DNA of 64,000 bases from Egicoccus halophilus (GTDB taxonomy: Bacteria; Actinomycetota; Nitriliruptoria; Nitriliruptorales; Nitriliruptoraceae): NCBI RefSeq assembly GCF_004300825.1, contig NZ_CP036250.1:1240001-1304000 (forward strand). Reading direction: 5' to 3'. Below are positions 1 to 33,317 of this stretch, one piece after another. The notes beneath the pieces were generated by a model. The model ran no database searches and had not been told where the DNA came from. It saw only the letters and a list, made by a program, of their open reading frames with translations. Within the stretch, counting starts at the first letter, position 1; the number at the start of each line of letters is the position of its first letter. The translations under genes were made by a program, and so were the position numbers.

Positions 1-2664
1 GTCCCCGTGCTCGGCATCACGGGTACGGGTGGGGCGGGCAAGTCCTCGCTCACCGACGAGCTGGTGCGACGTTTCCGCCGCGACCAGCAGGACAAGCTGC
101 GGATCGCGGTGCTCGCCATCGACCCGTCCCGTCGCCGGGGTGGCGGCGCGCTGCTGGGCGACCGCATCCGCATGAACGCGATCACGCCGGGCCGGGTGTT
201 CTTCCGCTCGATCGCGACCCGCAGTCACGACTCGGAGATCCCGGGGCACCTCGAGGACACCATCGCGGCCTGCAAGGCGGCCGGTTTCGACCTGGTCATC
301 GTCGAGACGCCCGGCATCGGGCAGGGCGACGCCGGCATCGTGCCGTTCGTGGACACGTCGCTGTACGTCATGACCCCGGAGTTCGGTGCGGCGTCGCAGC
401 TCGAGAAGATCGACATGCTCGACTTCGCCGACGCCGTCGCCGTCAACAAGTTCGAGCGCCGCGGAGCCGACGACGCCCGCCGGGACGTGGCCCGGCAGCT
501 GGTGCGCAACCGGGAGGCCTTCGGGACCCGGTGGGAGCAGATGCCGGTCTTCGGGACCTCCGCCGCCCGTTTCGACGACGACGGGGTCACCGCGCTGTAC
601 CAGGAGCTGACACGGGTGCTCCGTCCGCACGGGCTGATCGGGGACGACGGCGTGCTGCCGCAGGTGGACACCCGCGTCTCGACCGGACTCTCCGGTGTCC
701 TGCCCACCGGTCGGGAGCGCTACCTGTCCGAGATCGCCGACGCCGTGCGCGACTACCACGCCACGACCGCCCGGCAGGCCGAGCTCGTGCGGCGTCGTCA
801 GCACCTGCGCGGTGCACTGGCCGAACTCGACGACGCCGCAGGCGAGATCCGTGACGTCCTGCAGCAGCGCCTGGACGCACTCGCCTCGGGGATCGCGCCG
901 GAGGTCGACCGGCTGCTGGAGGACTGGCCCGCGACCGTGGAGGCCTACTCGGGTGACGAGTTCGCCTACACCGTGCGCGACCGTGAGTTCCGGGTGCCGT
1001 TGACCCGCGAGACGCTGTCGGGATCGAAGGTGCCGCGCGTGGCGCTGCCGCGCCTGCACGACGACGGTGACCTGTTGCACTTCCTGCGTGGCGAGAACCT
1101 GCCGGGGCGCTTCCCGTACACCGGCGGGGTGTTCCCCTTCAAGCGCGACGGTGAGGCCCCGGCGCGGATGTTCGCCGGTGAGGGCGATCCCTTCCGCACC
1201 AACCGGCGGTTCCACTACCTCGCCAAGGGCAATCCGGCGACGCGGCTGTCGACGGCGTTCGACTCGGTCACCCTCTACGGCCGCGACCCCGCCGAGCGTC
1301 CCGACGTCTACGGCAAGGTCGGCACGTCGGGCGTCTCGATCGCCACACTCGACGACATGAAGGCCCTCTACGACGGCTTCGACCTGTGCTCGCCGACGAC
1401 CTCGGTGTCGATGACGATCAACGGGCCGGCGCCGACGATCCTGGCGATGTTCCTCAACACCGCGATCGACCAGCAGCTCGAGGCGTTCTGCGAGGAGCAC
1501 GGCCGCGAACCCGACGCCGCGGAGGCCGACCAGGTCCGGGCGCGGGCGCTGCGCGAGGTGCGCGGCACCGTGCAGGCCGACATCCTCAAGGAAGACCAGG
1601 GCCAGAACACCTGCATCTTCTCGACCGAGTTCGCCCTGCGGTGCATGGCGGACGTGCAGGAATGGTTCATCGATCACCAGGTCCGCAACTTCTACTCGGT
1701 GTCGATCTCCGGCTACCACATCGCCGAGGCGGGAGCGAACCCGATCTCGCAGCTCGCGTTCACGCTGGCCAACGGGTTCACCTACGTGGAGGCCTACCTC
1801 GCCCGCGGCATGGACGTCGACGACTTCGCGCCCAACTTCTCGTTCTTCTTCTCCAACGGCATGGACGCCGAGTACACCGTGATGGGGCGCGTCGCCCGCC
1901 GCATCTGGGCCATCGCGATGCGCGACCGCTACGGCGCCGACGACCGCGCACAGAGGCTCAAGTACCACGTCCAGACCTCGGGGCGGTCCCTGCACGCCCA
2001 GGAGATGGACTTCAACGACATCCGCACCACCCTGCAGGCGCTGTGCGCGATCTACGACAACACCAACTCGCTGCACACCAACGCCTACGACGAGGCGGTC
2101 ACCACGCCGACCGAGTCGTCGGTCCGCCGGGCGCTCGCGATCCAGATGATCATCGACCAGGAGTGGGGGCTGTCGAAGAACGAGAACCCGCTGCAGGGCG
2201 CCGCGATCGTCGACGAGCTGACCGACCTGGTGGAGCAGGCCGTGCTCGCCGAGTTCGACCGCATCGCCAACCGTGGCGGCGTGCTCGGCGCGATGGAGAC
2301 CGGCTACCAGCGCGGCAGGATCCAGGACGAGTCGCTGCTCTACGAGCACCGCAAGCACGACGGCAGCCTGCCGATCGTCGGCGTCAACACGTTCCTGCGC
2401 GAGGACGCCGACGGCGAACCGGAGGCCGAGGTGGAGCTGATGCGCGCCACCGAGGACGAGAAGCGCTCCCAGCTCGAGCGGGTGCAGTCGTTCCGGGACC
2501 GGCACGCCGACGAGGGAGCCCGGCAGCTGGCCAGGCTGCAGGACGCGGCGACCTCCGGCGGCAACGTCTTCGACGTGCTGATGGACGCCGTGCGTTCCTG
2601 CAGCCTCGGCCAGATCACCGACGCGCTGTTCGAGGTCGGCGGCCAGTACCGACGCAACGTCTGA
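1..2664 (+). CDS. icmF: Fused isobutyryl-CoA mutase IcmF, 3' part (5' end outside window)
   Basis: The frame is already open at base 1, so the gene is truncated by the window edge; about 887 codons are visible of a family usually near 1,090. The visible part starts in the MeaB/ArgK-like G-protein chaperone domain, with P-loop GTGGAGKSS near residue 12 and the VETPGIGQ switch region near residue 100. A linker follows, then the large adenosylcobalamin-dependent mutase domain (about residues 330-885), with the substrate-binding TSVSMTINGPAPT stretch near residue 465 and YHIAEAGANP near 570. The missing N-terminus should hold the B12-binding domain. In the family the mutase interconverts isobutyryl-CoA and n-butyryl-CoA while the GTPase part protects and reloads the cofactor. 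The G-domain fused ahead of the mutase separates it from ordinary MutB/MeaB pairs. It is followed by a CoA-transferase gene, which fits acyl-CoA metabolism. Confidence 0.93.
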   Translation, partial: VPVLGITGTGGAGKSSLTDELVRRFRRDQQDKLRIAVLAIDPSRRRGGGALLGDRIRMNAITPGRVFFRSIATRSHDSEIPGHLEDTIAACKAAGFDLVIVETPGIGQGDAGIVPFVDTSLYVMTPEFGAASQLEKIDMLDFADAVAVNKFERRGADDARRDVARQLVRNREAFGTRWEQMPVFGTSAARFDDDGVTALYQELTRVLRPHGLIGDDGVLPQVDTRVSTGLSGVLPTGRERYLSEIADAVRDYHATTARQAELVRRRQHLRGALAELDDAAGEIRDVLQQRLDALASGIAPEVDRLLEDWPATVEAYSGDEFAYTVRDREFRVPLTRETLSGSKVPRVALPRLHDDGDLLHFLRGENLPGRFPYTGGVFPFKRDGEAPARMFAGEGDPFRTNRRFHYLAKGNPATRLSTAFDSVTLYGRDPAERPDVYGKVGTSGVSIATLDDMKALYDGFDLCSPTTSVSMTINGPAPTILAMFLNTAIDQQLEAFCEEHGREPDAAEADQVRARALREVRGTVQADILKEDQGQNTCIFSTEFALRCMADVQEWFIDHQVRNFYSVSISGYHIAEAGANPISQLAFTLANGFTYVEAYLARGMDVDDFAPNFSFFFSNGMDAEYTVMGRVARRIWAIAMRDRYGADDRAQRLKYHVQTSGRSLHAQEMDFNDIRTTLQALCAIYDNTNSLHTNAYDEAVTTPTESSVRRALAIQMIIDQEWGLSKNENPLQGAAIVDELTDLVEQAVLAEFDRIANRGGVLGAMETGYQRGRIQDESLLYEHRKHDGSLPIVGVNTFLREDADGEPEAEVELMRATEDEKRSQLERVQSFRDRHADEGARQLARLQDAATSGGNVFDVLMDAVRSCSLGQITDALFEVGGQYRRNV

Positions 2665-2832
2665 GCCGCCGACGCGGGATCTCGCGCCACGTCGCCGGCT
2701 GATCGGCCGACGGCGCCGTGGGGTGCTGGGGTCGTGGGGCCGTCGGTTCGTCGGGTCGTTGGGGTGTGGCGATTTGGTGGCCGTGCGCGCGACCGTCGAG
2801 GATGCGACCGATCCGTTCCGAGGGAGCGACGC

Positions 2833-3930
2833 ATGAGCGGACCGTTGCAGGGCGTACGGGTCGTGGAGCTCGGCGGGATCGGGCCGGGCCCCCACGCGGC
2901 GATGGTGCTGGCCGATCTCGGCGCCGACGTGGTGCGCGTCGAGCGCCCCGGTGGCGGGTTGGCCGTGCTGACCGATCCCTCGCGTGACCCGGTGCTGCGC
3001 GGCCGTCGGTCGGTCGCGGCGGACCTGCGCGACGCCGACGACCTCGACGCCGTCCTGGCCCTGCTCGACCGTGCCGACGTGCTCGTCGACGGGTTCCGGC
3101 CGGGGGTCACCGACCGGCTCGGCATCGGCCCCGACGTGCTCACGGCCCGCAACCCGCGACTCGTGTACGCCCGCATGACCGGCTGGGGTGCCGACGGGCC
3201 GTGGGCCCAGCGCGCCGGTCATGACCTCAACTACCTGTCGGTGACCGGCGTGCTGCACGCGATCGGGCCGCAGGACGGGCCGCCGGCGGTGCCGCTCAAC
3301 CTGGTCGGCGACTACGGCGGCGGCTCGCTCTACCTGCTGGTCGGCGTCCTGGCGGCGCTGTTCGAGCGGGAGCGCTCGGGCCGGGGGCAGGTCGTCGACG
3401 CGGCCATCGTCGACGGGGTCGTCAACCTCGCGCAGCTGGTGTGGGGACTGCGCGGGCAGGGCGCCTGGCAGGACCGGCCCGGATCGAACCTGCTCGACGG
3501 CGGCGCGCCGTTCTACACCACCTACCGCTGTGCCGACGACCGCCACGTCGCCGTCGGTGCCCTCGAGCCGGCCTTCTACGCCCAGCTGCTGGCCGGGCTC
3601 GAGCTGGATCCCGACGGCCTGCCGGCGCAGTACGACCCGGCGGGTTGGCCGCAGCTGCGCGACACCTTCACGGCCGTCTTCGCCACCCGCGCCCGGGACG
3701 ACTGGGCGGCGCTGTTCGATGGCACCGACGCGTGCGTGACCCCGGTGCTGACCTTCGCCGAGGCACCCGGCCACCCGCAGCTGGCCGCGCGCGGCAGCCT
3801 CGTCGAACGCGACGGGCAGGTGCAGGCCGCCGCGGCGCCACGCCTCTCGCGGACCGCCACCGGCGGGACGGCGCCCGCGCCCCGTCCCGGCAGCACCCCG
3901 ATCGACGAGGTGGCGCGCGACTGGTCGTGA
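2833..3930 (+). CDS. CoA-transferase family III (CaiB/BaiF), alpha-methylacyl-CoA racemase-like
   Basis: This 365-residue protein is of the class III CoA-transferase fold. The N-terminus LQGVRVVELGGIGPGPHAAM carries the family's nucleotide/CoA-binding start, followed by LADLGADVVRVERPGG and the conserved DVLVDGFRPGVTDRLGIGP region with the catalytic-site neighbourhood near residue 95. RMTGWGADGPWAQRAGHDLNYL (about 115-137) is typical of alpha-methylacyl-CoA racemase (Amacr) members rather than formyl-CoA transferases. The internal ATG at 2833 is chosen because a purine-rich GAGGGAG lies 6-7 bases upstream and the family N-terminus starts there; an upstream in-frame start at 2734 would add unrelated residues. 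It lies 168 bases after icmF on the same strand, so a shared role in branched-chain acyl-CoA epimerisation or transfer is plausible, but the substrate is not shown. Confidence 0.88.
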   Translation: MSGPLQGVRVVELGGIGPGPHAAMVLADLGADVVRVERPGGGLAVLTDPSRDPVLRGRRSVAADLRDADDLDAVLALLDRADVLVDGFRPGVTDRLGIGPDVLTARNPRLVYARMTGWGADGPWAQRAGHDLNYLSVTGVLHAIGPQDGPPAVPLNLVGDYGGGSLYLLVGVLAALFERERSGRGQVVDAAIVDGVVNLAQLVWGLRGQGAWQDRPGSNLLDGGAPFYTTYRCADDRHVAVGALEPAFYAQLLAGLELDPDGLPAQYDPAGWPQLRDTFTAVFATRARDDWAALFDGTDACVTPVLTFAEAPGHPQLAARGSLVERDGQVQAAAAPRLSRTATGGTAPAPRPGSTPIDEVARDWS

Positions 3931-4036
3931 GGGCGGCCGGCCGTCACCGTCGGCCGCGGTGGTGGTCACCCGTTCGGGTCACGTACCCTCCGCCATCCGG
4001 CCCGAACGGGCCAGGGAAGAACCCAGGGAGGGGACC

Positions 4037-6547
4037 ATGTGGCGTGACCCGCCGTCCGACGACGTCGGCTCCACGCCCGCACCGTCGTCGGTCGTCGCCG
4101 ACAGCCCGCTGGCACTGGCGGCCAGCGGGGCGTCGCTGACCGCCGTGCTGACGGCGGTCGTCACCCGCATCGAGACCGAGCTGCCCGGCGCGTGCGGCTC
4201 GGTGCTGCTGCTCGAGCCCGACGGTCGCCTGTCCCTGGCGTGCGCCCCGTCACTCCCCGCTGCCTGGCACGACGCCATGACCGACGGGTCCGCGACCGCA
4301 GCCGACGGAACGCCGCTGGCGCGTGCCGCCGCCACGGGAGCAGTGGCGGTGAGTCGCGACCTCGCCGCCGACCCGTGCCGGTCCGAGGTCATCGACGTCG
4401 CCGTCACGTCCGGCTTGCGGGCCTGTTGGTCGGCGCCGCTCGTCGGCCCGCGTGGGCCGCTCGGCGTCGTCGGGGTCCATCATCGGCAGGCCCGGGCGCC
4501 GACGGACGACGAGCGTGAGCGCCTGGTCGCCCACGCCCACATGGCCGCGGTCGCCGTGCTGTTGGCGCACTCGTCGCAAGCGCTCGACACCGCCCGGTCG
4601 CTGGACCCGGTCACCGGTCTGCCCGTCAACGACCGGCTGCCGGCGGTGCTCGAGGAGGTCCGGGAGACCGTCGTGGGGCTCCCCGCGGTCGCGGCGGTCG
4701 AGGTCGGCCGCCTCCGGGACTGCAACGACGCCTTCGGGTTCGAGGCCGGTGACCAACTGCTGCGCGACGCCGCCGCACGGCTCGCGGACCGGGCGGGTGG
4801 GGACCGACGGCTCCTGCGTGGTGTCGGCAACGTCTTCCTCGTGGTCCTCGACGGCCCCGACGAGGCGGCGCTGCGTGAGGCCGCCACGGGGTTCGCCGAG
4901 GCGTTGCGGGCCCCGTTCGTGATCGCCGGACGCGACTTCCACGTCGCGTCGGCGGTGGGGCTGGTCCTGGCGGAGAGCCCGGACCGGGACCCGGCGGAGC
5001 TGGCGCGGCTCGCGATCGACGCGATGGAGCGCGGCCGGAGCGAGCGTGGCACGGTGGTGGTCGCCGGGGGAGCACCGCGCCCGGCCACCACCGACCGTCT
5101 CGAGCTCGAGCAGGACCTGCGCCGGGCACTGGACGTCGGCGAGGTGACGGTCCACTACCAGCCGCAGTACGACCTGCACACCGGGATGCTCGTCGGCGCC
5201 GAGGCGCTGGTGCGCTGGCGGCATCCCGACCGTGGCGTGCTCCTCCCGGGCCGGTTCCTGCCGGTCCTCGAGGCCGCCGGTCTGGAGCGTGAGCTCAGCC
5301 AACTCGTGATCGACCGGGTCTGTCGCGACCTCGCCGACTGGCGCATGACCCGGCCGGGGTTGCTGCTGCCGGTGTCGTTCAACGTCTCCGCCGCCCAGCT
5401 GCAGGACGCCCAGCTCTACGACCGGGTGGCCGACGCGCTGGCGGCGACCGGGCTGCCCGGGTCGGCGCTGGTGGTGGAGGTGACCGAGCAGGCGGCGTTC
5501 GTCGACGAGGCCGGTGCCGCGGCGACGCTGCGACGGCTGACGTCGCTGGGCGTGCGCATCGCCATCGACGACTTCGGTACCGGGTACTCCTCGCTCAGCC
5601 ACGCCCGACGGCTGCCGACCAGCACGCTCAAGATCGATCGCAGCTTCGTGACCCACATCGCCAGCCAGCCCCCCGACGCGGCGGTCGTCGCGGCCATCTG
5701 CGGGCTGGCGGACGGGCTCGGTCTGACGGTCGTCGCCGAGGGCATCGAGGACCCCGAGCAGTTGCGGGTCGTGCGCGAGCTCGGCTGCCACGTCGGGCAG
5801 GGCTTCCACTGGAGCCGCGCGCTGCCGCCCGAGGAGTTCCGCGACCTGCTGCCGGAGATCGGCCCGGGACCGGACGCGAAGGCCGGCCCGGACGGTGGCT
5901 GGCGGATCGACGTCGACCGGGTCGTGGCCGATCTCGCCCACCAGACCCGCACCCCGCTGACGATCGTGTCGATGTACGCCGACCTGCTCGCGGCCGCGGA
6001 CGCCGACCCGGAGGTCGTCGCGGGCCTGCGCCGCCAGGTGACCCGCCTGACGGGGGTGCTCTCGCAGACCGCCGACGCCGCCGCGCTCGACCGGGGCGGC
6101 CTGCTGCTCGCCCGACAGCCGGTCGCGCTGCATGCGGTCCTCCACGAGCTCGTGACCGAGGGCCCGCCGGAGCTGCGCGAACGCATCGATCTGCGCCACA
6201 CCGACGCCGACGTCGTCGGGGACCCGGACCGTTTGCGTCAGCTGCTCGGACACCTGCTCGACAACGTGCGCGTGCACGCGCCGGCGTCCGGCCCGGTCAG
6301 GGTCGCGGTCACCCGACACGACACGCGGGTGTGCGTCACGGTCGAGGACCGCGGTCCGGGGATCCCGATGAGCAAGGCCGAGCACGTGTTCCGGAAGTAC
6401 ACCCGCCTCGATCCGGGCGCGGTCGGGCTCGGTCTCGGGCTGTTCATCGCCCGGCAGCTCGCCCGCCACCACGGCGGCGAGCTCAGCTACCGGCCGGCGA
6501 CGCCCACCGGGGCGTGCTTCGTCCTCGAACTGCCTGCCGCCGACTGA
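4037..6547 (+). CDS. GAF-GGDEF(degenerate)-EAL-histidine kinase fusion protein
   Basis: This 836-residue soluble multidomain protein starts at ATG 4037 behind AGGGAGGGG. Order: GAF-like sensor (about 22-178), a GGDEF fold (about 185-341) whose signature reads GVGNVF, so cyclase activity is unlikely, and an EAL domain (about 352-608). The EAL phosphodiesterase residues look intact: EALVRWRHP with Glu389, FNVSAAQL, EVTEQ, DDFGTGYSS, LKIDRSFV, VVAEGIE and QGFHWS. A HisKA segment follows with LAHQTRTPL (His635; the usual following Glu/Asp is Gln), then a HATPase_c domain with N-box LLDNVRVHAP, G1 DRGPGIP and G2 GLGLGLF. No membrane segment or signal peptide is visible. Predicted role is c-di-GMP hydrolysis linked to phosphotransfer. 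A paralogue with the same GAF-GGDEF-EAL front but another C-terminus lies at 30365-33190. The joint activity is inference. Confidence 0.9.
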   Translation: MWRDPPSDDVGSTPAPSSVVADSPLALAASGASLTAVLTAVVTRIETELPGACGSVLLLEPDGRLSLACAPSLPAAWHDAMTDGSATAADGTPLARAAATGAVAVSRDLAADPCRSEVIDVAVTSGLRACWSAPLVGPRGPLGVVGVHHRQARAPTDDERERLVAHAHMAAVAVLLAHSSQALDTARSLDPVTGLPVNDRLPAVLEEVRETVVGLPAVAAVEVGRLRDCNDAFGFEAGDQLLRDAAARLADRAGGDRRLLRGVGNVFLVVLDGPDEAALREAATGFAEALRAPFVIAGRDFHVASAVGLVLAESPDRDPAELARLAIDAMERGRSERGTVVVAGGAPRPATTDRLELEQDLRRALDVGEVTVHYQPQYDLHTGMLVGAEALVRWRHPDRGVLLPGRFLPVLEAAGLERELSQLVIDRVCRDLADWRMTRPGLLLPVSFNVSAAQLQDAQLYDRVADALAATGLPGSALVVEVTEQAAFVDEAGAAATLRRLTSLGVRIAIDDFGTGYSSLSHARRLPTSTLKIDRSFVTHIASQPPDAAVVAAICGLADGLGLTVVAEGIEDPEQLRVVRELGCHVGQGFHWSRALPPEEFRDLLPEIGPGPDAKAGPDGGWRIDVDRVVADLAHQTRTPLTIVSMYADLLAAADADPEVVAGLRRQVTRLTGVLSQTADAAALDRGGLLLARQPVALHAVLHELVTEGPPELRERIDLRHTDADVVGDPDRLRQLLGHLLDNVRVHAPASGPVRVAVTRHDTRVCVTVEDRGPGIPMSKAEHVFRKYTRLDPGAVGLGLGLFIARQLARHHGGELSYRPATPTGACFVLELPAAD

Positions 6548-6596: not shown

Positions 6597-8030
6597 TCAG
6601 CCGACGCGGGCGCGCACGCGCGCGTCGAGGTCGTCGAGGTCGGTGCGGCGTCCGCCGAGCACGGACACGCCGAGCGCCGCGAGCCCACTGCCGAGCACCG
6701 CCCCGAGGAACGGTGGCAGGGTCGGCACCGCGTCGGGGAACGTCACGGCCGCGGCGGCACCGGCCAACGAGCCGGTCGCGAGCCAGGCAGCGCCCAGCGC
6801 GCCGACCACCCCGCCGAGCACGCCGGCGCGCAATCCGGCCGTGGTCGCCCGCGGCCACAGCCCCAGCAGGGCCGGGAGGAGCAGCACGGCCGCCAGCAGG
6901 TCGGCGACGAGGAACAGCTGCAGGACCGAGGTGGCGACCAGCCCGACGATCGCGGCGGGCAGCACCACCACGACGGTGAGCAGGCGGGCCTGGTCGAGCC
7001 GCAGGCCGGGCCGTTCGGCGACCAGCAGGGCCGCCAGCCCGTTCTCCAGCGTGTCGACCGAGGAGGCGACCAGCGCCACGCCCAGCACCAGCACGAGGGC
7101 GACGACCACGTCGGGGAGACGGCCGACGAGCGCGAACACCGACAGGGCGGGTACCTCGACCACGCCGGCGGCCGCCGCCAGCACCCCGAGCCCGCCGGCG
7201 AGCAGCATCAAGGGCACGGTCACCGCCGCGCCGAGCAGCGCGCCGTGCCGCAGTGCCCGGTCGTCGCGGGCGGACCACACGCGCTGCCAGTAGCCGTGGT
7301 GGAACAGGTTGGCGGCGGTGACCGCGAGCACGAGCGTGAACGCGCTCTCGAGCCCCGGACGGGCGACCTCGAGCAGGCCGAGCTGGCGAGCGGCGGGGAC
7401 GGGCGCGTCGACCCACCGCAGCGCGACGGTGCCCGCCACCAGCAGTAGGGCCAGCACCAGCCACGCCTGCCAGCGGTCGGTCCGCAGGGAGGCCCGCAGG
7501 CCCCCGGTGGCCGTGTAGGCCAGGGTGGCGACCACCACGGCCGGCACGGTCACCTCGCGGGGCACGCCGCCGAGCAGCTCGACCATGCCGCCGATGGCGA
7601 CCAGCTCCGCGGCGACGAACACGCCCATGTAGAGCAGCGACACGCCGGCGACCAGGCGTCCACCCGTCGGCCCGAACCGGACACGCACGAACTCGGCCAG
7701 GCCCTGGCCCGATGGCACGATCCGACGCAGGCGGGGGCCGACGGCCGCCAGGACGAGGAAGGGACCCGCCGCCGCCAGCGCGTAGCCGACCACCGGGACG
7801 ATGCCGAGCACCGCACCGAGCTCCGGTGGGGCGAACAGGATCCACGCCCCGAGGCCGGAGGCCACGAACGACAACCCGAGCACACCTGGGCCCTGCGTGC
7901 CCCGGGCGACGGTGAAGTCCGCCACCGGATCGGTCCCCGGCTCGGCGGGGGAGCGGCCCCGCAGACCGATGCCGACGAACGCCGCGAGCGTGATCGCGAG
8001 CAGGGCAAGACTGACGGACGTGGCCAGCAT
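6597..8030 (-). CDS. Sodium:solute symporter (SSS family) under TPP riboswitch, ThiV-like candidate
   Basis: This 477-residue integral membrane protein has roughly 12-13 hydrophobic segments. Its N-terminus has the SSS-type DFTVARGTQGPGVLGLSFVASG stretch (about 38-60), and SGQGLAEFVRVRFGP near 105 and LFHHGYWQRVWSARDDRAL near 250 are also typical of solute:sodium symporters. The ATG at 8030 has GGAGGAAG six bases upstream. That ribosome-binding site is the 3' end of a thiamine pyrophosphate riboswitch, so translation should fall when TPP is abundant. Known TPP-controlled SSS transporters (ThiV type) are predicted to import a thiamine precursor or related compound, so this may be one. Substrate assignment rests on the riboswitch, not on the protein sequence. 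The next gene upstream on the same strand ends at 8213, so this is a separate unit. Confidence 0.85.
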   Translation of the reverse strand: MLATSVSLALLAITLAAFVGIGLRGRSPAEPGTDPVADFTVARGTQGPGVLGLSFVASGLGAWILFAPPELGAVLGIVPVVGYALAAAGPFLVLAAVGPRLRRIVPSGQGLAEFVRVRFGPTGGRLVAGVSLLYMGVFVAAELVAIGGMVELLGGVPREVTVPAVVVATLAYTATGGLRASLRTDRWQAWLVLALLLVAGTVALRWVDAPVPAARQLGLLEVARPGLESAFTLVLAVTAANLFHHGYWQRVWSARDDRALRHGALLGAAVTVPLMLLAGGLGVLAAAAGVVEVPALSVFALVGRLPDVVVALVLVLGVALVASSVDTLENGLAALLVAERPGLRLDQARLLTVVVVLPAAIVGLVATSVLQLFLVADLLAAVLLLPALLGLWPRATTAGLRAGVLGGVVGALGAAWLATGSLAGAAAAVTFPDAVPTLPPFLGAVLGSGLAALGVSVLGGRRTDLDDLDARVRARVG

Positions 8031-27683: not shown

Positions 27684-28838
27684 TCAGCCCTCCGCCGCCC
27701 CCGTCCGACGCACGACCCGGTCGAGCTCCGCGAGGTCGAACGGCTTGGCCAGCGTCGGACGTCCCTCCAGCATCCCGTCCCGGGGCGGGTCGCCGGTCAG
27801 GTACACGACCGTCTCGAGCAGCCCCGGACGCAGCCGGTCGAGCCGCGCAGCGACCTCGGGACCCAACTCCCGTTCGAGGTGCACGTCGAGCAGCACCAGC
27901 TCGACCGGCTGGGCGGCGACGACGCGTTCGGCCTGCTCACCGTCGGCGGCGACGTGGACCCGCCAGCCGGTCCGCTCGAGAACCATGGCCAGCAGCGTGC
28001 ACAGCGTCTCGTCGTCGTCGACGACCAACGCCCGGCGCCCGGTGGCCCCGGCCCCGTCGGCGGCCGTCTCCTCGGCCTCCCCAGCGGCTGCCGTGGACGC
28101 TCCCGCGCCGGTCACCACCTCCGGGATCCGCACGGTGAGCACGGTCTCACCCGCGTCGGTGTGTCGCAGGTCCACGGCGCCGCCGACGGCGACCAGGTGG
28201 GCGCGTGCGGCGGCGACGGCGAGACCCACGCCACGGCCGTGTTCGTCACCGTCGGGCCCGACCGGTACGAACGGCCGTCGCTGGACCGCCTCGGCCGGTG
28301 CCTCGCCGTCGTCGTGCAGGCGCACCAGCAGCGCGTCGTCGACGACGTCGAACGCGAGCGTGACCGGTCGCGAGCGGCCCGGCGCGTCGTGTGCGTCCGC
28401 AGCCAACGCGACCAGTGCCGCCGGGAGCAGCGCCGCGTCCATCCGGACGCCCACGGCAGCGGGCTCCCCGACACCCGGCCCGTTCCCGGCCGGGGCGGGC
28501 AGCGACACCGCCACCTCGAGCCCACGGTCGTCGCACCGACGCTGCACCTCGGTGGCCAGCGCGTGCAGCGTCCCGGCGGTCGCGGCCGCGTCCGTCGGGG
28601 CGTAGCGCAGTGCCGCGTCGTGGGCGACCGCACCGGCCCGCAGCGCCGCCTGCTCGGTGAGGTCGAGCAGTTCGCTGCGCTGCACCGGGTCGTCGATGGT
28701 GCGCAGGGCGGCGATGGCCATCGTGACGCTCGCCAAGGGGTTGTTGAGGTCGTGGACGATCCCGCGCAGGACCGCGTACGCCAGGGTCCGTCGCGCGCGC
28801 TCGTCGTCGTCCGGGATGTCGGGAATCGGCGCCTCCAT
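27684..28838 (-). CDS. Soluble hybrid histidine kinase-like protein with C-terminal receiver
   Basis: A 384-residue cytosolic protein with ATG 28838 and GAGG seven bases upstream. H-box IVHDLNNPLASV places the phospho-accepting His at 29. The region expected to be the N-box reads ALVALAADAHDAP, without the usual asparagine, while a G2-like GRGVGLAVAAARAHL is kept, so ATP binding or kinase activity may be weak. A variable Ala-rich linker (about 235-260) leads to a receiver domain: ALVVDDDETL, phosphorylation aspartate in VLLDVHLE and the lysine in LAKPF. It has no sensor domain, so it may work as a phosphotransfer module or with a separate sensor. It precedes tRNA-His on the same strand with no clear partner. 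Confidence 0.82.
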   Translation of the reverse strand: MEAPIPDIPDDDERARRTLAYAVLRGIVHDLNNPLASVTMAIAALRTIDDPVQRSELLDLTEQAALRAGAVAHDAALRYAPTDAAATAGTLHALATEVQRRCDDRGLEVAVSLPAPAGNGPGVGEPAAVGVRMDAALLPAALVALAADAHDAPGRSRPVTLAFDVVDDALLVRLHDDGEAPAEAVQRRPFVPVGPDGDEHGRGVGLAVAAARAHLVAVGGAVDLRHTDAGETVLTVRIPEVVTGAGASTAAAGEAEETAADGAGATGRRALVVDDDETLCTLLAMVLERTGWRVHVAADGEQAERVVAAQPVELVLLDVHLERELGPEVAARLDRLRPGLLETVVYLTGDPPRDGMLEGRPTLAKPFDLAELDRVVRRTGAAEG

Positions 28839-29092: not shown

Positions 29093-30328
29093 TTACGACG
29101 CGGCGCCGCCGTCCGGTCCCGGTGCCGGGGTCGGAGGGGCATCGGCCGTCGGTATCCGTTCCTGGTGTTCGACGAGGACGTCCACGCTCGCCTGGTCGCC
29201 GACCTCACGGGCGGTCGCCTCGAGCAGTCCCAGGGTGCGCACCACGGCGCGTCGGGACACCGGGTCGGTGCTGGCACCCGCGTTCAGTCGGTCGAAGACC
29301 GACCGCAGGTGGTCGGCGGGTGCCCAGGCGGTGGGGGAGACGACCGTGCGCCCGTCCTCGCCGCGCAGGCAGCCCGAGGCGGTGCCGCGGCGCAGCAGCA
29401 GGTGCAGGACCGCGCGGAGATGGACCAGCGCCTCGTGCGCCGAGGACGTGTCCGCCGAATGTGGCGCCATGGCGTGCTGCGCGACGTCCACCAACTGCTG
29501 GACGGCGTAGGCCAGGTCTCGGCGGTTGGAACGGGTCCGCTCGAGACGGAAGGCCGCCAGCACCGCGTCGACGACCGGCGGCTCCACGTCGACGTCGAGA
29601 TGTCCGATCGTCTCGCCCTCGGCGACGAACTCCCCGACGTCGGCGTGGAGCACCAGCGTCGCGCCGGCCGGCAGGGCGTCGATCAGCGCCCGATGATCGA
29701 TCCGCTGGACCCAGCCGAGGTCGCGGCTGGTCACGGTGGTGCCCGGCGCGTCCGGATCGGGTACCTCCGCCGTTCCGGCCTCGTTCGGCCAGGGCGGGTC
29801 CGCGAGCAGCTCGAGCACCTGGTCGGTCAACGTGCGCACGACGCTGGGGACCGAGAGGCTGCCGACCGCGTGCCGCATGGCCAACAGCACCCCGATCAGC
29901 GCCGCGACCACGACCGCCGCACTGAGCGAGGACAGCAGCAGCGGCACGCCCTCGCCCGTGTCGGGGTAGACGACCACCGTCGCCACCAGATAGGCGAGCA
30001 TGCCCACCATCACGCCGAGGACCTGCCGTTGGAAGCGGTCGTCGAGATAGGCGGCCAGCACCCGCGAGGAGACCTGGCTCGAGGCGAGCCCGACCACCAC
30101 GGTGCGCATCCACAGGGCGAACACCGCGATCGTCAGGACGCCCCCGACGAAGGAGGCGAGCACGCCCTGCGCCGTCTCGGGTGCCACCGGGATCCGGACG
30201 CCGACGAGCCGGTCGAGCCAGGCGACGCCCAGCGCCACCAGTACCCCGGCCGTCATGCCGGCGAGGCTGCGCAGGCTCAGCAGCAGGGCGAACGTACGCA
30301 GTCGCCCGTCGTCGCGTACCAACTGCAC
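29093..30328 (-). CDS. DUF2254 family membrane protein
   Basis: About 411 residues. The GTG at 30328 is chosen because GAGGAG lies eight bases upstream; a GTG at 30337 sits directly on that site. Four hydrophobic helices fill the first ~150 residues (LAGMTAGVLVALGVAWLDRL, GVLTIAVFALWMRTVVVGLA, VMVGMLAYLVATVVVY, AAVVVAALIGVLLAMRH). The rest is soluble and carries DUF2254 landmarks: HLDVDVEPPVVDAVLAAF and the RTRSNRRDLAYAVQQLVDVAQHAMAPHSAD segment near residue 270. Family function is unknown. It lies 30 bases upstream of the 58-residue acidic protein gene and downstream of the GGDEF-EAL gene, all on the same strand. Confidence 0.85.
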   Translation of the reverse strand: MQLVRDDGRLRTFALLLSLRSLAGMTAGVLVALGVAWLDRLVGVRIPVAPETAQGVLASFVGGVLTIAVFALWMRTVVVGLASSQVSSRVLAAYLDDRFQRQVLGVMVGMLAYLVATVVVYPDTGEGVPLLLSSLSAAVVVAALIGVLLAMRHAVGSLSVPSVVRTLTDQVLELLADPPWPNEAGTAEVPDPDAPGTTVTSRDLGWVQRIDHRALIDALPAGATLVLHADVGEFVAEGETIGHLDVDVEPPVVDAVLAAFRLERTRSNRRDLAYAVQQLVDVAQHAMAPHSADTSSAHEALVHLRAVLHLLLRRGTASGCLRGEDGRTVVSPTAWAPADHLRSVFDRLNAGASTDPVSRRAVVRTLGLLEATAREVGDQASVDVLVEHQERIPTADAPPTPAPGPDGGAAS

Positions 30329-30364
30329 GGCCGTCACTCCTCGTCGCCGGCCGCACCCAACCAG

Positions 30365-33190
30365 TCAGCCCGCCCGGCGTCGTGTCCGGTGCTCGTCCGT
30401 GCGGGCATCGGCGGCCCGCAGGGCGTCGGCGACGGAACCGCCGATCTCGACCGGCGCGTGCCCGACGGCGGCGCGCACGCCGGCGACGTGCAGGGCGTCG
30501 GCCACGGCGTCGGCCACCGCCGCGGTCGCCCGCGGTGGGCGGCGCAGCAGGACGGCGAAGCGCCTCCCGTCCAGTGCGGCGACCACCTCGGCCGCCGTGC
30601 GGTGTTCGGCCAGCACCCGCGCCACGGCCCGACGCTGGCCGTCGTGCTGGTCGGCAGCGGTCGACCCGAGGTGGACGACCAGGACGCTCGCGGGGTCACC
30701 GAGGACCGAGAACCGTTCCTCGAGCGCCGTCGTCCGCTGCTGCCAGCCCTCCGGGCCCTCGGGTACCGACGCCGGGGCGAGCTCGCGGCCCGTCTGCCGC
30801 TGCTGCCGGGTCGGCAGGTGGGTCGACGTCGCCGCCGTGGTCCGTTCCTCGCCGGCCAGCACGGACGAGAGCAGCTCACCGAGCAGTTCGAGCAGCGGCT
30901 GGTGGTCGTGCAGGCGTTCGGACTGCCGATCCGGGTCCACGCCGCAGAGGCTGCCGAACAGCTCGCCGTCGGCGTGCCAGAGTGGGACGCCGGCGTAGGC
31001 ACCGATCTTCACCTGCCGGTTGATCCCGGCCGCCGCGTAACGGGGGACCGCCGCCGCGTCCGGGGCGATCGGCGGTGCTTCACCGGCGACCATGGCGGTG
31101 CAGTAGGCGTCTTCCCAGGCGTGGGCACCGCCACGCTGCAGGCCGTAGGCGCGATCGGCCACGTACAGGTAGCGCTGTCGTTCCCCGTCGTAGCGGGTGA
31201 CGGCCCACAGACCGAACGGGACGTGGTCGGCGAGGTAGTGCACTACGGCCTCGGCGGCGGCCGCGAACGGCGGCGCGCCCATCGACGCGATCGCCGGCGC
31301 GATCGGGGGCGCGATCGAGGGCGCGCCCACCGACCTGATCGGGGGCGTGATCGGGGGCGGAGCCGTGGCGACCACCCGCGGGGGCGTCGACGTGGGAGCC
31401 GGGCGTGCGGTGAGCAGGCCGTGGAACTGCTCGGGTGGCACGGCGGGGCTCCACAGGAAGCCCTGTCCGAGGTCACAGCCGAGGCGGCGGACGGCCTCGA
31501 GCTGCGCCTCGGTCTCGACGCCCTCGGCGACGACGTCGACGCCGAGCCCCTCGGCCAGGCCCACGACCGAGGCGATCACGGAGGCGTCGTGGGGATCCTC
31601 GACGCAGCCGCGCACGAAGCTGCGGTCGATCTTGAGGGCGTCGACCGGCAGTTGCCGGGCGTGGTGCAGCGACGAGTACCCGGTGCCGAAGTCGTCGATG
31701 GACACCCGCACGTCGAGCGCCCGTAGCCCTTCGATCGTCCGACGCAGGCTGCTGAGGTCGGCGAAGACCACCTGTTCGGTGATCTCCACCTGCAACGCGG
31801 TGCCCGGCACCCCGTGGCGTCGCAACAGGGTCCGCACGCGGTCCACGAGGTCCGGATCGGTCAACTCGTCGGCAGAGACGTTGACGGCCACCGAGACCCC
31901 GTGCGTGTCGGCACCCCACGTCGCCAGGTCGCGGCAGGCCTGCTCGAGGACGACCTCGGTCAAGGCGCGTCGGAGGTGGCCCGTGGCGAGGACGTGGAGG
32001 AAGGCGCCGGGCAGCAGCAGCCCTTCCTCGGGGTGCTCCCAACGCACCAGTGCCTCGGCGGCCACGAGCGTGCCGGAGGTCAGGTCGTACTGGGGCTGGT
32101 AGTGCAGGACCACCTCGCCGGCGGCCAGGCCGTCGCGCAGCCGGTTCTCCCGTCCGATGTGGTCGGCGAGCCGGCCGTCGCGCGTCGTCGGCTCCGCGTG
32201 GACCTCGAGGTCGGTGCCGCTGCGGACGGCGGTGCGCAACGCCGCTCGTGCCCCGGCGAGCAGGCCCTCGGTGTCCGGCGTGCCGGGTCGTTCCTGGCTG
32301 ACGAGGCCGACCCGGGGCGCGGCGGTGAAGCCGGTGCCGGCGACGGCGTACGGCGCCCGCAGCGCCTGCAGCGTGCGTTCCGCCGTCAACCGGCCGGTGG
32401 CAGCGTCGACCCCGGGCAGGACGAGCGCGAACTCGTCGCCGAAGAGGCGGAACGTGCGCGCGGCCGAGTTCAGGTTGCACAACCGCTGGGCAGCCTGCCG
32501 CAGCAGTTCGTCCCCGGCTGCCGGGCCGAACGCGGCGTTGCACTCGCGCAGGCGCCCGACCTCGACCATGAGCACGGTGACGAGGTCGCCGTCGGCGACC
32601 GCGTCGGTCACGAGTCGCTCCAGGGCGTTCGCGTCCCGCAGGCCGGTGAGCGGATCGGCGCCGTCCCGGCCGGTGTTCCGGGCGTCGGCGACGGCGTTCT
32701 GCACCGCCACCGCGGCGATCTGGGCGTAGCCGGCCAGTTGCTGCAGCTGCTGGCCGACGGGTCGGCGTGGGGTGGGGAAGTAGACCCCGAACGAACCGAG
32801 CGCGCCCTGCAGTCCGATGATCGGTGTCGACCAGCACGCCCGCAGGCCACTGGCGACGGCGTCGGCGGCGAAGTCGCGCCATGCCGGGTCGGTCGGGATG
32901 TTCGCACTCACCACCGGCTGCAGCAGGGCGGCCGCCCGACCGCACGAGCCGACCCGGGGGTCCGGTGGGACTCCCTCGGCGAGGCGCTCGATCCAGGCGG
33001 CGGGCAGGGACGGAGCGGCGGCCACCCGCAGTCGGTCGTCGTCCCCGAGCAGCATCACGGACCCGAGGCTGCCCGGCAGGTCGGCCTCGATCATCTCGAC
33101 GATCGTCTGCAACACGGTGCCCAGCGGCGCACCGGTGGAGGTCATCGCGAGACAGGCGGCGTATCCCGCGGGCAGCGTGGGGTGACCCAT
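30365..33190 (-). CDS. GAF-GGDEF-EAL-GAF protein with C-terminal cyclase-like remnant
   Basis: About 941 residues from ATG 33190; a longer start at 33241 is possible, and the ribosome-binding site is weak either way. The first ~600 residues parallel the protein at 4037-6547: GAF (about 20-180; PSLPAAWIERLAEG matches PSLPAAWHDAMTDG), a GGDEF domain with signature LFGDEF, and an EAL domain with EALVRWEHP (Glu379), EITEQVVF, DDFGTGYSS, LKIDRSFV, VVAEGVE and QGFLWSP, so phosphodiesterase activity is likely. The C-terminus differs: instead of a kinase, a second GAF-like domain (about 640-770; FGLWAVTRYDGERQRYLYVA) and a final GGDEF-like fold without its signature (about 800-925; ASVLVVHLG, RRFAVLLRRPP). 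A proline/alanine linker with repeated 'APPIAP' motifs joins the halves. Cytosolic c-di-GMP signalling role inferred. Confidence 0.87.
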   Translation of the reverse strand: MGHPTLPAGYAACLAMTSTGAPLGTVLQTIVEMIEADLPGSLGSVMLLGDDDRLRVAAAPSLPAAWIERLAEGVPPDPRVGSCGRAAALLQPVVSANIPTDPAWRDFAADAVASGLRACWSTPIIGLQGALGSFGVYFPTPRRPVGQQLQQLAGYAQIAAVAVQNAVADARNTGRDGADPLTGLRDANALERLVTDAVADGDLVTVLMVEVGRLRECNAAFGPAAGDELLRQAAQRLCNLNSAARTFRLFGDEFALVLPGVDAATGRLTAERTLQALRAPYAVAGTGFTAAPRVGLVSQERPGTPDTEGLLAGARAALRTAVRSGTDLEVHAEPTTRDGRLADHIGRENRLRDGLAAGEVVLHYQPQYDLTSGTLVAAEALVRWEHPEEGLLLPGAFLHVLATGHLRRALTEVVLEQACRDLATWGADTHGVSVAVNVSADELTDPDLVDRVRTLLRRHGVPGTALQVEITEQVVFADLSSLRRTIEGLRALDVRVSIDDFGTGYSSLHHARQLPVDALKIDRSFVRGCVEDPHDASVIASVVGLAEGLGVDVVAEGVETEAQLEAVRRLGCDLGQGFLWSPAVPPEQFHGLLTARPAPTSTPPRVVATAPPPITPPIRSVGAPSIAPPIAPAIASMGAPPFAAAAEAVVHYLADHVPFGLWAVTRYDGERQRYLYVADRAYGLQRGGAHAWEDAYCTAMVAGEAPPIAPDAAAVPRYAAAGINRQVKIGAYAGVPLWHADGELFGSLCGVDPDRQSERLHDHQPLLELLGELLSSVLAGEERTTAATSTHLPTRQQRQTGRELAPASVPEGPEGWQQRTTALEERFSVLGDPASVLVVHLGSTAADQHDGQRRAVARVLAEHRTAAEVVAALDGRRFAVLLRRPPRATAAVADAVADALHVAGVRAAVGHAPVEIGGSVADALRAADARTDEHRTRRRAG

Positions 33191-33317
33191 GCCAGGAGGA
33201 CCTTTCTCGAGTCGGCGACAGCGGACGGGAACCCTCCCCATCGGCCGGAGGCAGCACGGGGCAAGGACCAGGGACGGCGCGACGGGGCGCGACCCGCCGG
33301 GGGCGGGCGAGTTCGAG

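What the first reader, a model, noticed from the sequence alone, without database searches (positions are those of the whole stretch)
4037..6547. GAF-GGDEF-EAL fused to a complete histidine kinase core
One protein joins a degenerate GGDEF, an apparently intact EAL phosphodiesterase and a HisKA-HATPase module with His, N, G1 and G2 boxes present. This would let c-di-GMP or GTP binding in the front half control phosphotransfer, or the reverse. The H-box has Gln where a catalytic acid is usual. No cognate response regulator is adjacent, so its target is open.
Basis: partly seen in the sequence, partly recalled or inferred. Interest (0 to 1): 0.65.

Follow-up and report, generated by a model that had tools for sequence, protein, structure and literature searches.

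The report
c-di-GMP phosphodiesterase fused to histidine kinase
[quoted passage not shown] both halves are of well-known kinds, but this joining is rare in the genomes searched, and whether the halves control each other is untested.

Summary
Window 4037-6547 (+) is one open frame of 836 aa with GAF, GGDEF, EAL, HisKA and HATPase_c domains, all above Pfam cut-offs. The EAL keeps all nine catalytic residues, so it is probably an active c-di-GMP phosphodiesterase. The GGDEF has lost both A-site (VGNVF) and I-site, so GTP or c-di-GMP sensing there is not supported. The C-terminus is a real DHp-CA kinase core, joined by a Gly/Pro-rich, apparently disordered linker, not a signalling helix. That argues against tight allosteric coupling and for a tethered orphan kinase. 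The Gln after the H-box His is less odd than claimed: three other kinases of this genome have it, each beside a response regulator.

There is no sign of an assembly artefact. A paralogue 24 kb away has the same GAF-GGDEF-EAL front (47% identity) but no kinase. No other of the 66 genomes held for the class has the fusion; one of 396 in the phylum has a second EAL-kinase protein, probably an independent fusion. EAL proteins with HisKA/HATPase domains are reported from alphaproteobacteria, and HK-GGDEF proteins (SgmT, GSU3350) are known. So this is a rare, lineage-specific variant of a known kind, of moderate interest.

The parts
4037..6547 (+). CDS, 836 aa, GAF-GGDEF(degenerate)-EAL-HisKA-HATPase_c
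4025..4033 (+). Shine-Dalgarno-like AGGGAGGGG before the ATG at 4037
   Evidence: read from sequence
4130..4558 (+). GAF domain (aa 32-174), putative sensor
   Evidence: Pfam GAF_2 E 5e-12
4505..4597 (+). continuous helix aa 157-187 joining GAF and GGDEF, a signalling-helix-like link
   Evidence: AlphaFold2 model
4601..5041 (+). GGDEF domain (aa 189-335), degenerate; A-site VGNVF at nt 4823-4837, I-site absent
   Evidence: Pfam E 3e-11; sequence
5111..5818 (+). EAL phosphodiesterase domain (aa 359-594) with all nine catalytic residues; Glu389 at nt 5201-5203
   Evidence: Pfam E 5e-74; alignment to MorA 4RNH; invariant columns
5858..5911 (+). Gly/Pro-rich, probably disordered linker aa 608-625 between EAL and DHp
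   Evidence: sequence and low pLDDT without helix
5915..6091 (+). HisKA/DHp (aa 627-685), H-box HQTRTPL, His635 at nt 5939-5941, Gln at H+1, Thr639 at H+4
   Evidence: Pfam E 2e-7; helices 626-653 and 658-685
6218..6541 (+). HATPase_c/CA domain (aa 728-835) with N, G1, F and G2 boxes
   Evidence: Pfam E 1e-23; Foldseek to HK853, YycG, CpxA
30365..33241 (-). paralogue, 958 aa: GAF-GGDEF(FGDEF)-EAL front 47% identical, different C-terminus (second GAF stretch and GGDEF_2-like), no kinase

Best explanation
This is a cytoplasmic, GAF-sensing c-di-GMP phosphodiesterase (catalytically dead GGDEF plus active EAL) to which a HisKA-type histidine-kinase core has been added at the C-terminus by domain shuffling in this lineage. 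Most likely the GAF, through its long helix and the pseudo-GGDEF, controls EAL dimer activity and so lowers c-di-GMP. The kinase core is joined by a flexible linker, dimerises through its DHp helices and signals to a response regulator encoded elsewhere, as an orphan kinase. The two outputs are then linked mainly by being on one dimeric molecule (shared dimerisation, place and abundance), not by a rigid allosteric path. Shown: the domains, the catalytic residues, the degenerate GGDEF, the linker sequence, the paralogue without kinase, no adjacent regulator. Inferred: enzyme activities, direction of signalling, independence of the two halves.
For: Domains over Pfam cut-offs. Nine of nine EAL catalytic residues, aligned to the EAL domain of MorA. 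A- and I-site of GGDEF lost (I-site positions as described for SgmT, PMC3509222). DHp-CA fold recovered by AlphaFold2 (mean pLDDT 74.7) with Foldseek matches to YycG, HK853 and CpxA at E about 1e-16 to 1e-15. Linker 608-625 low confidence and without a helix into DHp, while GAF-GGDEF is bridged by a helix 157-187. The EAL tree puts the query with the kinase-less window paralogue (SH-aLRT 98) and apart from the other EAL-kinase protein, so the kinase was gained here, or lost in the paralogue, after their split. Other H-Q kinases of the genome sit beside response-regulator hits.
Against: The H+1 acid is Gln; E-to-Q at this place made CrdS kinase-dead but phosphatase-competent, and NtrB E140Q behaved likewise (PMC3510030), so the core may be only a phosphatase or a dimerisation module. 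The HK domain sits on a long branch (1.3 against a median of 0.58), which could mean relaxed constraint. A disordered linker does not exclude coupling by domain docking. No orthologue was found to show that the fusion is conserved.
Confidence: 0.58

Rival explanations
1. True coupled dual-output switch: c-di-GMP occupancy or turnover at the EAL controls the kinase/phosphatase balance, or phosphorylation state controls hydrolysis, through domain docking or shared dimer geometry.
For: Both catalytic centres look intact apart from Gln636. c-di-GMP is known to switch CckA to phosphatase (cited in PMC10333796) and to bind SgmT (PMC3509222). A second EAL-kinase protein exists in the phylum.
Against: The linker is Gly/Pro-rich with no continuous helix into DHp. 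GGDEF has no A- or I-site. The paralogue has the same front without a kinase. No conservation of the pairing in the class.
Confidence: 0.17
2. Kinase-impaired core: because of Gln636 the DHp-CA module no longer autophosphorylates well and acts as a response-regulator phosphatase (Thr639 at H+4 kept) or only as an ATP-binding dimerisation and scaffold module for the EAL.
For: CrdS E372Q and NtrB E140Q are kinase-negative, phosphatase-positive (PMC3510030). Thr at the phosphatase position is kept. Long HK branch.
Against: Gln at H+1 recurs in three other kinases of the genome, all beside response-regulator hits, and HQLRTPL-coding matches occur in 21 of 119 phylum genomes, so it is a recurrent natural form here. 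All ATP-binding boxes are intact.
Confidence: 0.2
3. Assembly or frameshift artefact: two separate genes read as one.
For: No orthologue with the fusion in the class.
Against: One uninterrupted frame in a single-contig genome, even GC3 (0.90-0.98) through the linker, no stop, and a similar fusion in another genome of the phylum.
Confidence: 0.03

Closest known systems
GGDEF-EAL composite phosphodiesterases (e.g. MorA, MucR; PDB 4RNH, 5M3C)
   Same: GGDEF-EAL arrangement over about 190-603, all EAL catalytic residues aligned to MorA
   Different: GGDEF A-site here is VGNVF, and these structures have no kinase after the EAL
SgmT of Myxococcus xanthus (GAF, kinase, receiver, GGDEF)
   Same: orphan kinase with GAF and a degenerate GGDEF in one protein (PMC3509222)
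   Different: SgmT has the kinase before the GGDEF, a receiver domain, an intact I-site and no EAL; here the I-site is lost and an EAL is present
EAL proteins with HisKA, HATPase, Hpt and HAMP domains of Caulobacterales and Rhizobiales
   Same: EAL and histidine-kinase domains in one protein, reported as a recurring group (PMC9756655)
   Different: different phylum; that group also has Hpt and HAMP; sequences not compared here
L105 protein of genome G399, same phylum (898 aa open frame)
   Same: GGDEF-like, EAL, then HisKA-HATPase_c at the C-terminus; 33% identity over 664 columns
   Different: no Pfam GAF hit, EAL lacks the Glu of AEGxE (AVGVE), H-box HEIRTPL has the acid; EAL and HK trees do not pair it with the query
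Window paralogue 30365-33241
   Same: GAF-GGDEF-EAL front, 47% identity, EAL 55%
   Different: no kinase; C-terminus has a second GAF stretch and a GGDEF_2-like domain; A-site FGDEF less decayed

Membership tests
EAL c-di-GMP phosphodiesterase | metal- and substrate-binding residues E, N, E, E, D, D, K, E, Q | tested here: met
   E389 N449 E481 E484 D511 D512 K532 E568 Q588, invariant in A3, aligned to MorA
EAL c-di-GMP phosphodiesterase | hydrolysis of c-di-GMP | not testable with these tools
   needs enzyme assay
GGDEF diguanylate cyclase | GG(D/E)EF A-site | tested here: not met
   VGNVF at 263-267
I-site c-di-GMP receptor (PopA/SgmT-like GGDEF) | RxxD at A-site start -9 to -6 | tested here: not met
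   G254 and R257 (spacing from SgmT)
LapD-like degenerate EAL receptor | EAL with lost catalytic signature | tested here: not met
   signature intact
HisKA histidine kinase | HisKA plus HATPase_c with His and N, G1, F, G2 boxes | tested here: met
HisKA histidine kinase | acidic residue directly after the phospho-acceptor His | tested here: not met
   Gln636; same in L092, L093, L095 of this genome
HisKA histidine kinase | autophosphorylation and phosphotransfer | not testable with these tools
   needs biochemical assay
Two-component pair | adjacent response regulator gene | tested here: not met
   nearest REC hit at window 27789, in another hybrid kinase
SgmT-type c-di-GMP receptor kinase | kinase core followed by REC and GGDEF with intact I-site | tested here: not met
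   different order, no REC, no I-site
Caulobacterales/Rhizobiales EAL-HisKA-Hpt group | EAL with HisKA, HATPase, Hpt, HAMP | tested here: not met
   no Hpt or HAMP hit; sequences of that group not compared

The most novel reading that the evidence does not exclude
A one-molecule converter between c-di-GMP and phosphorelay signalling: occupancy or turnover at a catalytically active EAL sets the kinase/phosphatase state of the attached core, so that one protein both erases the second messenger and reports its level to a response regulator.
Probability: 0.14. Interest if true: 0.7.

Novelty: new variant of a known kind. Interest (0 to 1): 0.36.

Why it matters
If the EAL and the kinase influence each other, this would be a direct, single-protein link between the two main bacterial signalling currencies and easy to test in vitro. 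Even if they do not, it is a clean example of domain shuffling: two paralogues in one genome share the GAF-GGDEF-EAL front and carry unrelated C-termini.

Tried and rejected
Assembly artefact: rejected on frame, GC3 and single contig. Orthologues with the same fusion: none in all 66 genomes held of the class; hits with longer apparent coverage (G021, G031, G038) showed no kinase match to the query's HK domain at E 1e-5 in the same frame. Apparent spanning hits in G061, G356 and plasmid H1 were kinases without an EAL match or annotation. Pseudomonadota: no spanning hit in 398 genomes, but only five candidates per genome were scored, so this is weak. A mixed alignment of EAL and kinase rows was misaligned and not used. 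Literature searches for an EAL-HisKA protein by name found nothing, nor any paper printing HQLRTPL. Phage collection: no match covering 80% of the EAL-kinase query. Promoter and terminator scans were empty, so the operon structure is open.

Full report
What is there. Window 4037-6547 (+) encodes 836 aa. An in-frame GTG lies upstream at 3959, but AGGGAGGGG at 4025-4033 supports the ATG at 4037. Pfam finds, in order, GAF_2, GGDEF, EAL, HisKA and HATPase_c, each above its curated cut-off. phmmer against the PDB gives GGDEF-EAL structures (MorA, MucR, DosP) over residues 130-604 and histidine kinases over 627-834.

Front half. All nine EAL catalytic positions are kept: E389, N449, E481, E484, D511, D512, K532, E568, Q588. 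Their roles are taken from established knowledge of EAL enzymes such as RocR. The GGDEF is dead by motif: A-site VGNVF, and no RxxD at the I-site positions defined for SgmT. In the paralogue the same site reads FGDEF, so decay has gone further here. AlphaFold2 with 11 rows gives good confidence for most of GAF, GGDEF and EAL, a continuous helix 157-187 between GAF and GGDEF, and a helix 349-367 into the EAL. This fits a GAF that regulates the EAL.

Back half. The kinase core has the phospho-acceptor H635, N743, a DxGxG at 771 and GLGLGL at 797. A separate AlphaFold2 model (mean pLDDT 74.7) has DHp helices at 626-653 and 658-685 and a CA domain; Foldseek matches YycG, HK853 and CpxA. Between EAL and DHp, residues 608-625 are Gly/Pro-rich, without a helix and of low confidence in both models (in the full-length model the kinase half had no aligned relatives, so its low confidence there says little). 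DHp helix 1 starts nine residues before the His. Sensor kinases normally feed a continuous helix into DHp (general knowledge), so a rigid path from EAL to DHp is not evident.

The Gln. H+1 is Gln636. In CrdS, E372Q removed kinase but not phosphatase activity, and NtrB E140Q behaved alike (PMC3510030). However, three other kinases of this genome have H-Q (L092 AHQLRTPV, L093 AHQLRTPL, L095 SHQLRTPL), and receiver-domain hits lie beside each on the same strand. A pattern coding HQLRTPL, searched with a subset of the Leu and Arg codons, is found in 21 of 119 genomes of the phylum. So Gln alone does not mark a dead kinase in this group, but activity stays open.

Origin. The genome has 22 EAL hits and 26 HisKA hits, and by their positions this is the only frame that holds both. 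The nearest relative is a paralogue in the same window, 30365-33241 (-): 47% identity over GAF-GGDEF-EAL (GAF 43%, GGDEF 44%, EAL 55%), then a different C-terminus with a second GAF stretch and a GGDEF_2-like domain. An EAL tree joins the two with SH-aLRT 98. Among 60 relatives the listed hits do not exceed about 42% identity, and in all 66 genomes held of the class no other protein spans EAL and kinase. The C-terminal swap is therefore lineage-specific as far as sampled.

Elsewhere. In 396 genomes of the phylum one other spanning protein was found (G399, L105): GGDEF-like, EAL, HisKA, HATPase_c in an 898-aa frame. Its EAL lacks the Glu of AEGxE, and its H-box has the acid. Neither the EAL tree nor the HK tree pairs it with the query, so independent fusion is the simpler reading, not proven. 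In 398 Pseudomonadota genomes nothing spanned (limited sensitivity). The literature reports EAL proteins with HisKA, HATPase, Hpt and HAMP domains in Caulobacterales and Rhizobiales (PMC9756655), HK-GGDEF proteins (GSU3350 in PMC1183210) and SgmT (PMC3509222). The kind is therefore known; this order with GAF and an intact EAL appears rare.

Surroundings. Upstream on the same strand lie an IcmF-like MeaB-mutase (7-2664, cut by the window edge) and a CoA-transferase III (2734-3930), 106 bp before the ATG; downstream a convergent SSF-type transporter (6597-8030, -). No response regulator is near. Nothing in the neighbours points to the signal or target.

Verdict. Observation confirmed; interpretation partly supported. 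Most likely a GAF-regulated c-di-GMP phosphodiesterase with a flexibly tethered orphan kinase core. Coupled control remains possible but is not favoured by the linker.

Noticed in passing
window 30365-33241 (-): Paralogue of the finding with the same GAF-GGDEF-EAL front and a different C-terminus (second GAF stretch, GGDEF_2-like).
   Followed up: partly
L089 813-2024 (-) and 2404-3954 (-), genome C1:2953500-2957500: A GGDEF-EAL gene followed on the same strand by a separate HisKA-HATPase kinase gene: a split version of the EAL plus kinase pairing.
   Followed up: partly
L086, genome C1:2207500-2213500 (-): 1102-aa frame with two HisKA domains and a receiver domain between them; the best-scoring match to the query's kinase domain among the loci fetched (113.6 bits).
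   Followed up: no
window 27684-28838 (-): Small hybrid kinase with weak HisKA and HATPase_c hits (below cut-off) and a C-terminal receiver domain, near the paralogue and a DUF2254 membrane protein (29093-30337, -).
   Followed up: no
L092, L093, L095 (genome C1 near 1941700, 835800, 2744400): Three HisKA kinases with Gln after the phospho-acceptor His, each beside a response-regulator hit; H-Q kinases may merit a biochemical check in this phylum.
   Followed up: partly
window 7-2664 and 2734-3930 (+): IcmF-like fused MeaB/acyl-CoA mutase followed by a CaiB-type CoA-transferase, directly upstream of the finding on the same strand.
   Followed up: no
genome C1:1583478-1584187 (-): EAL domain split over two frames (profile 3-115 and 114-236), a probable frameshift or pseudogene.
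   Followed up: no
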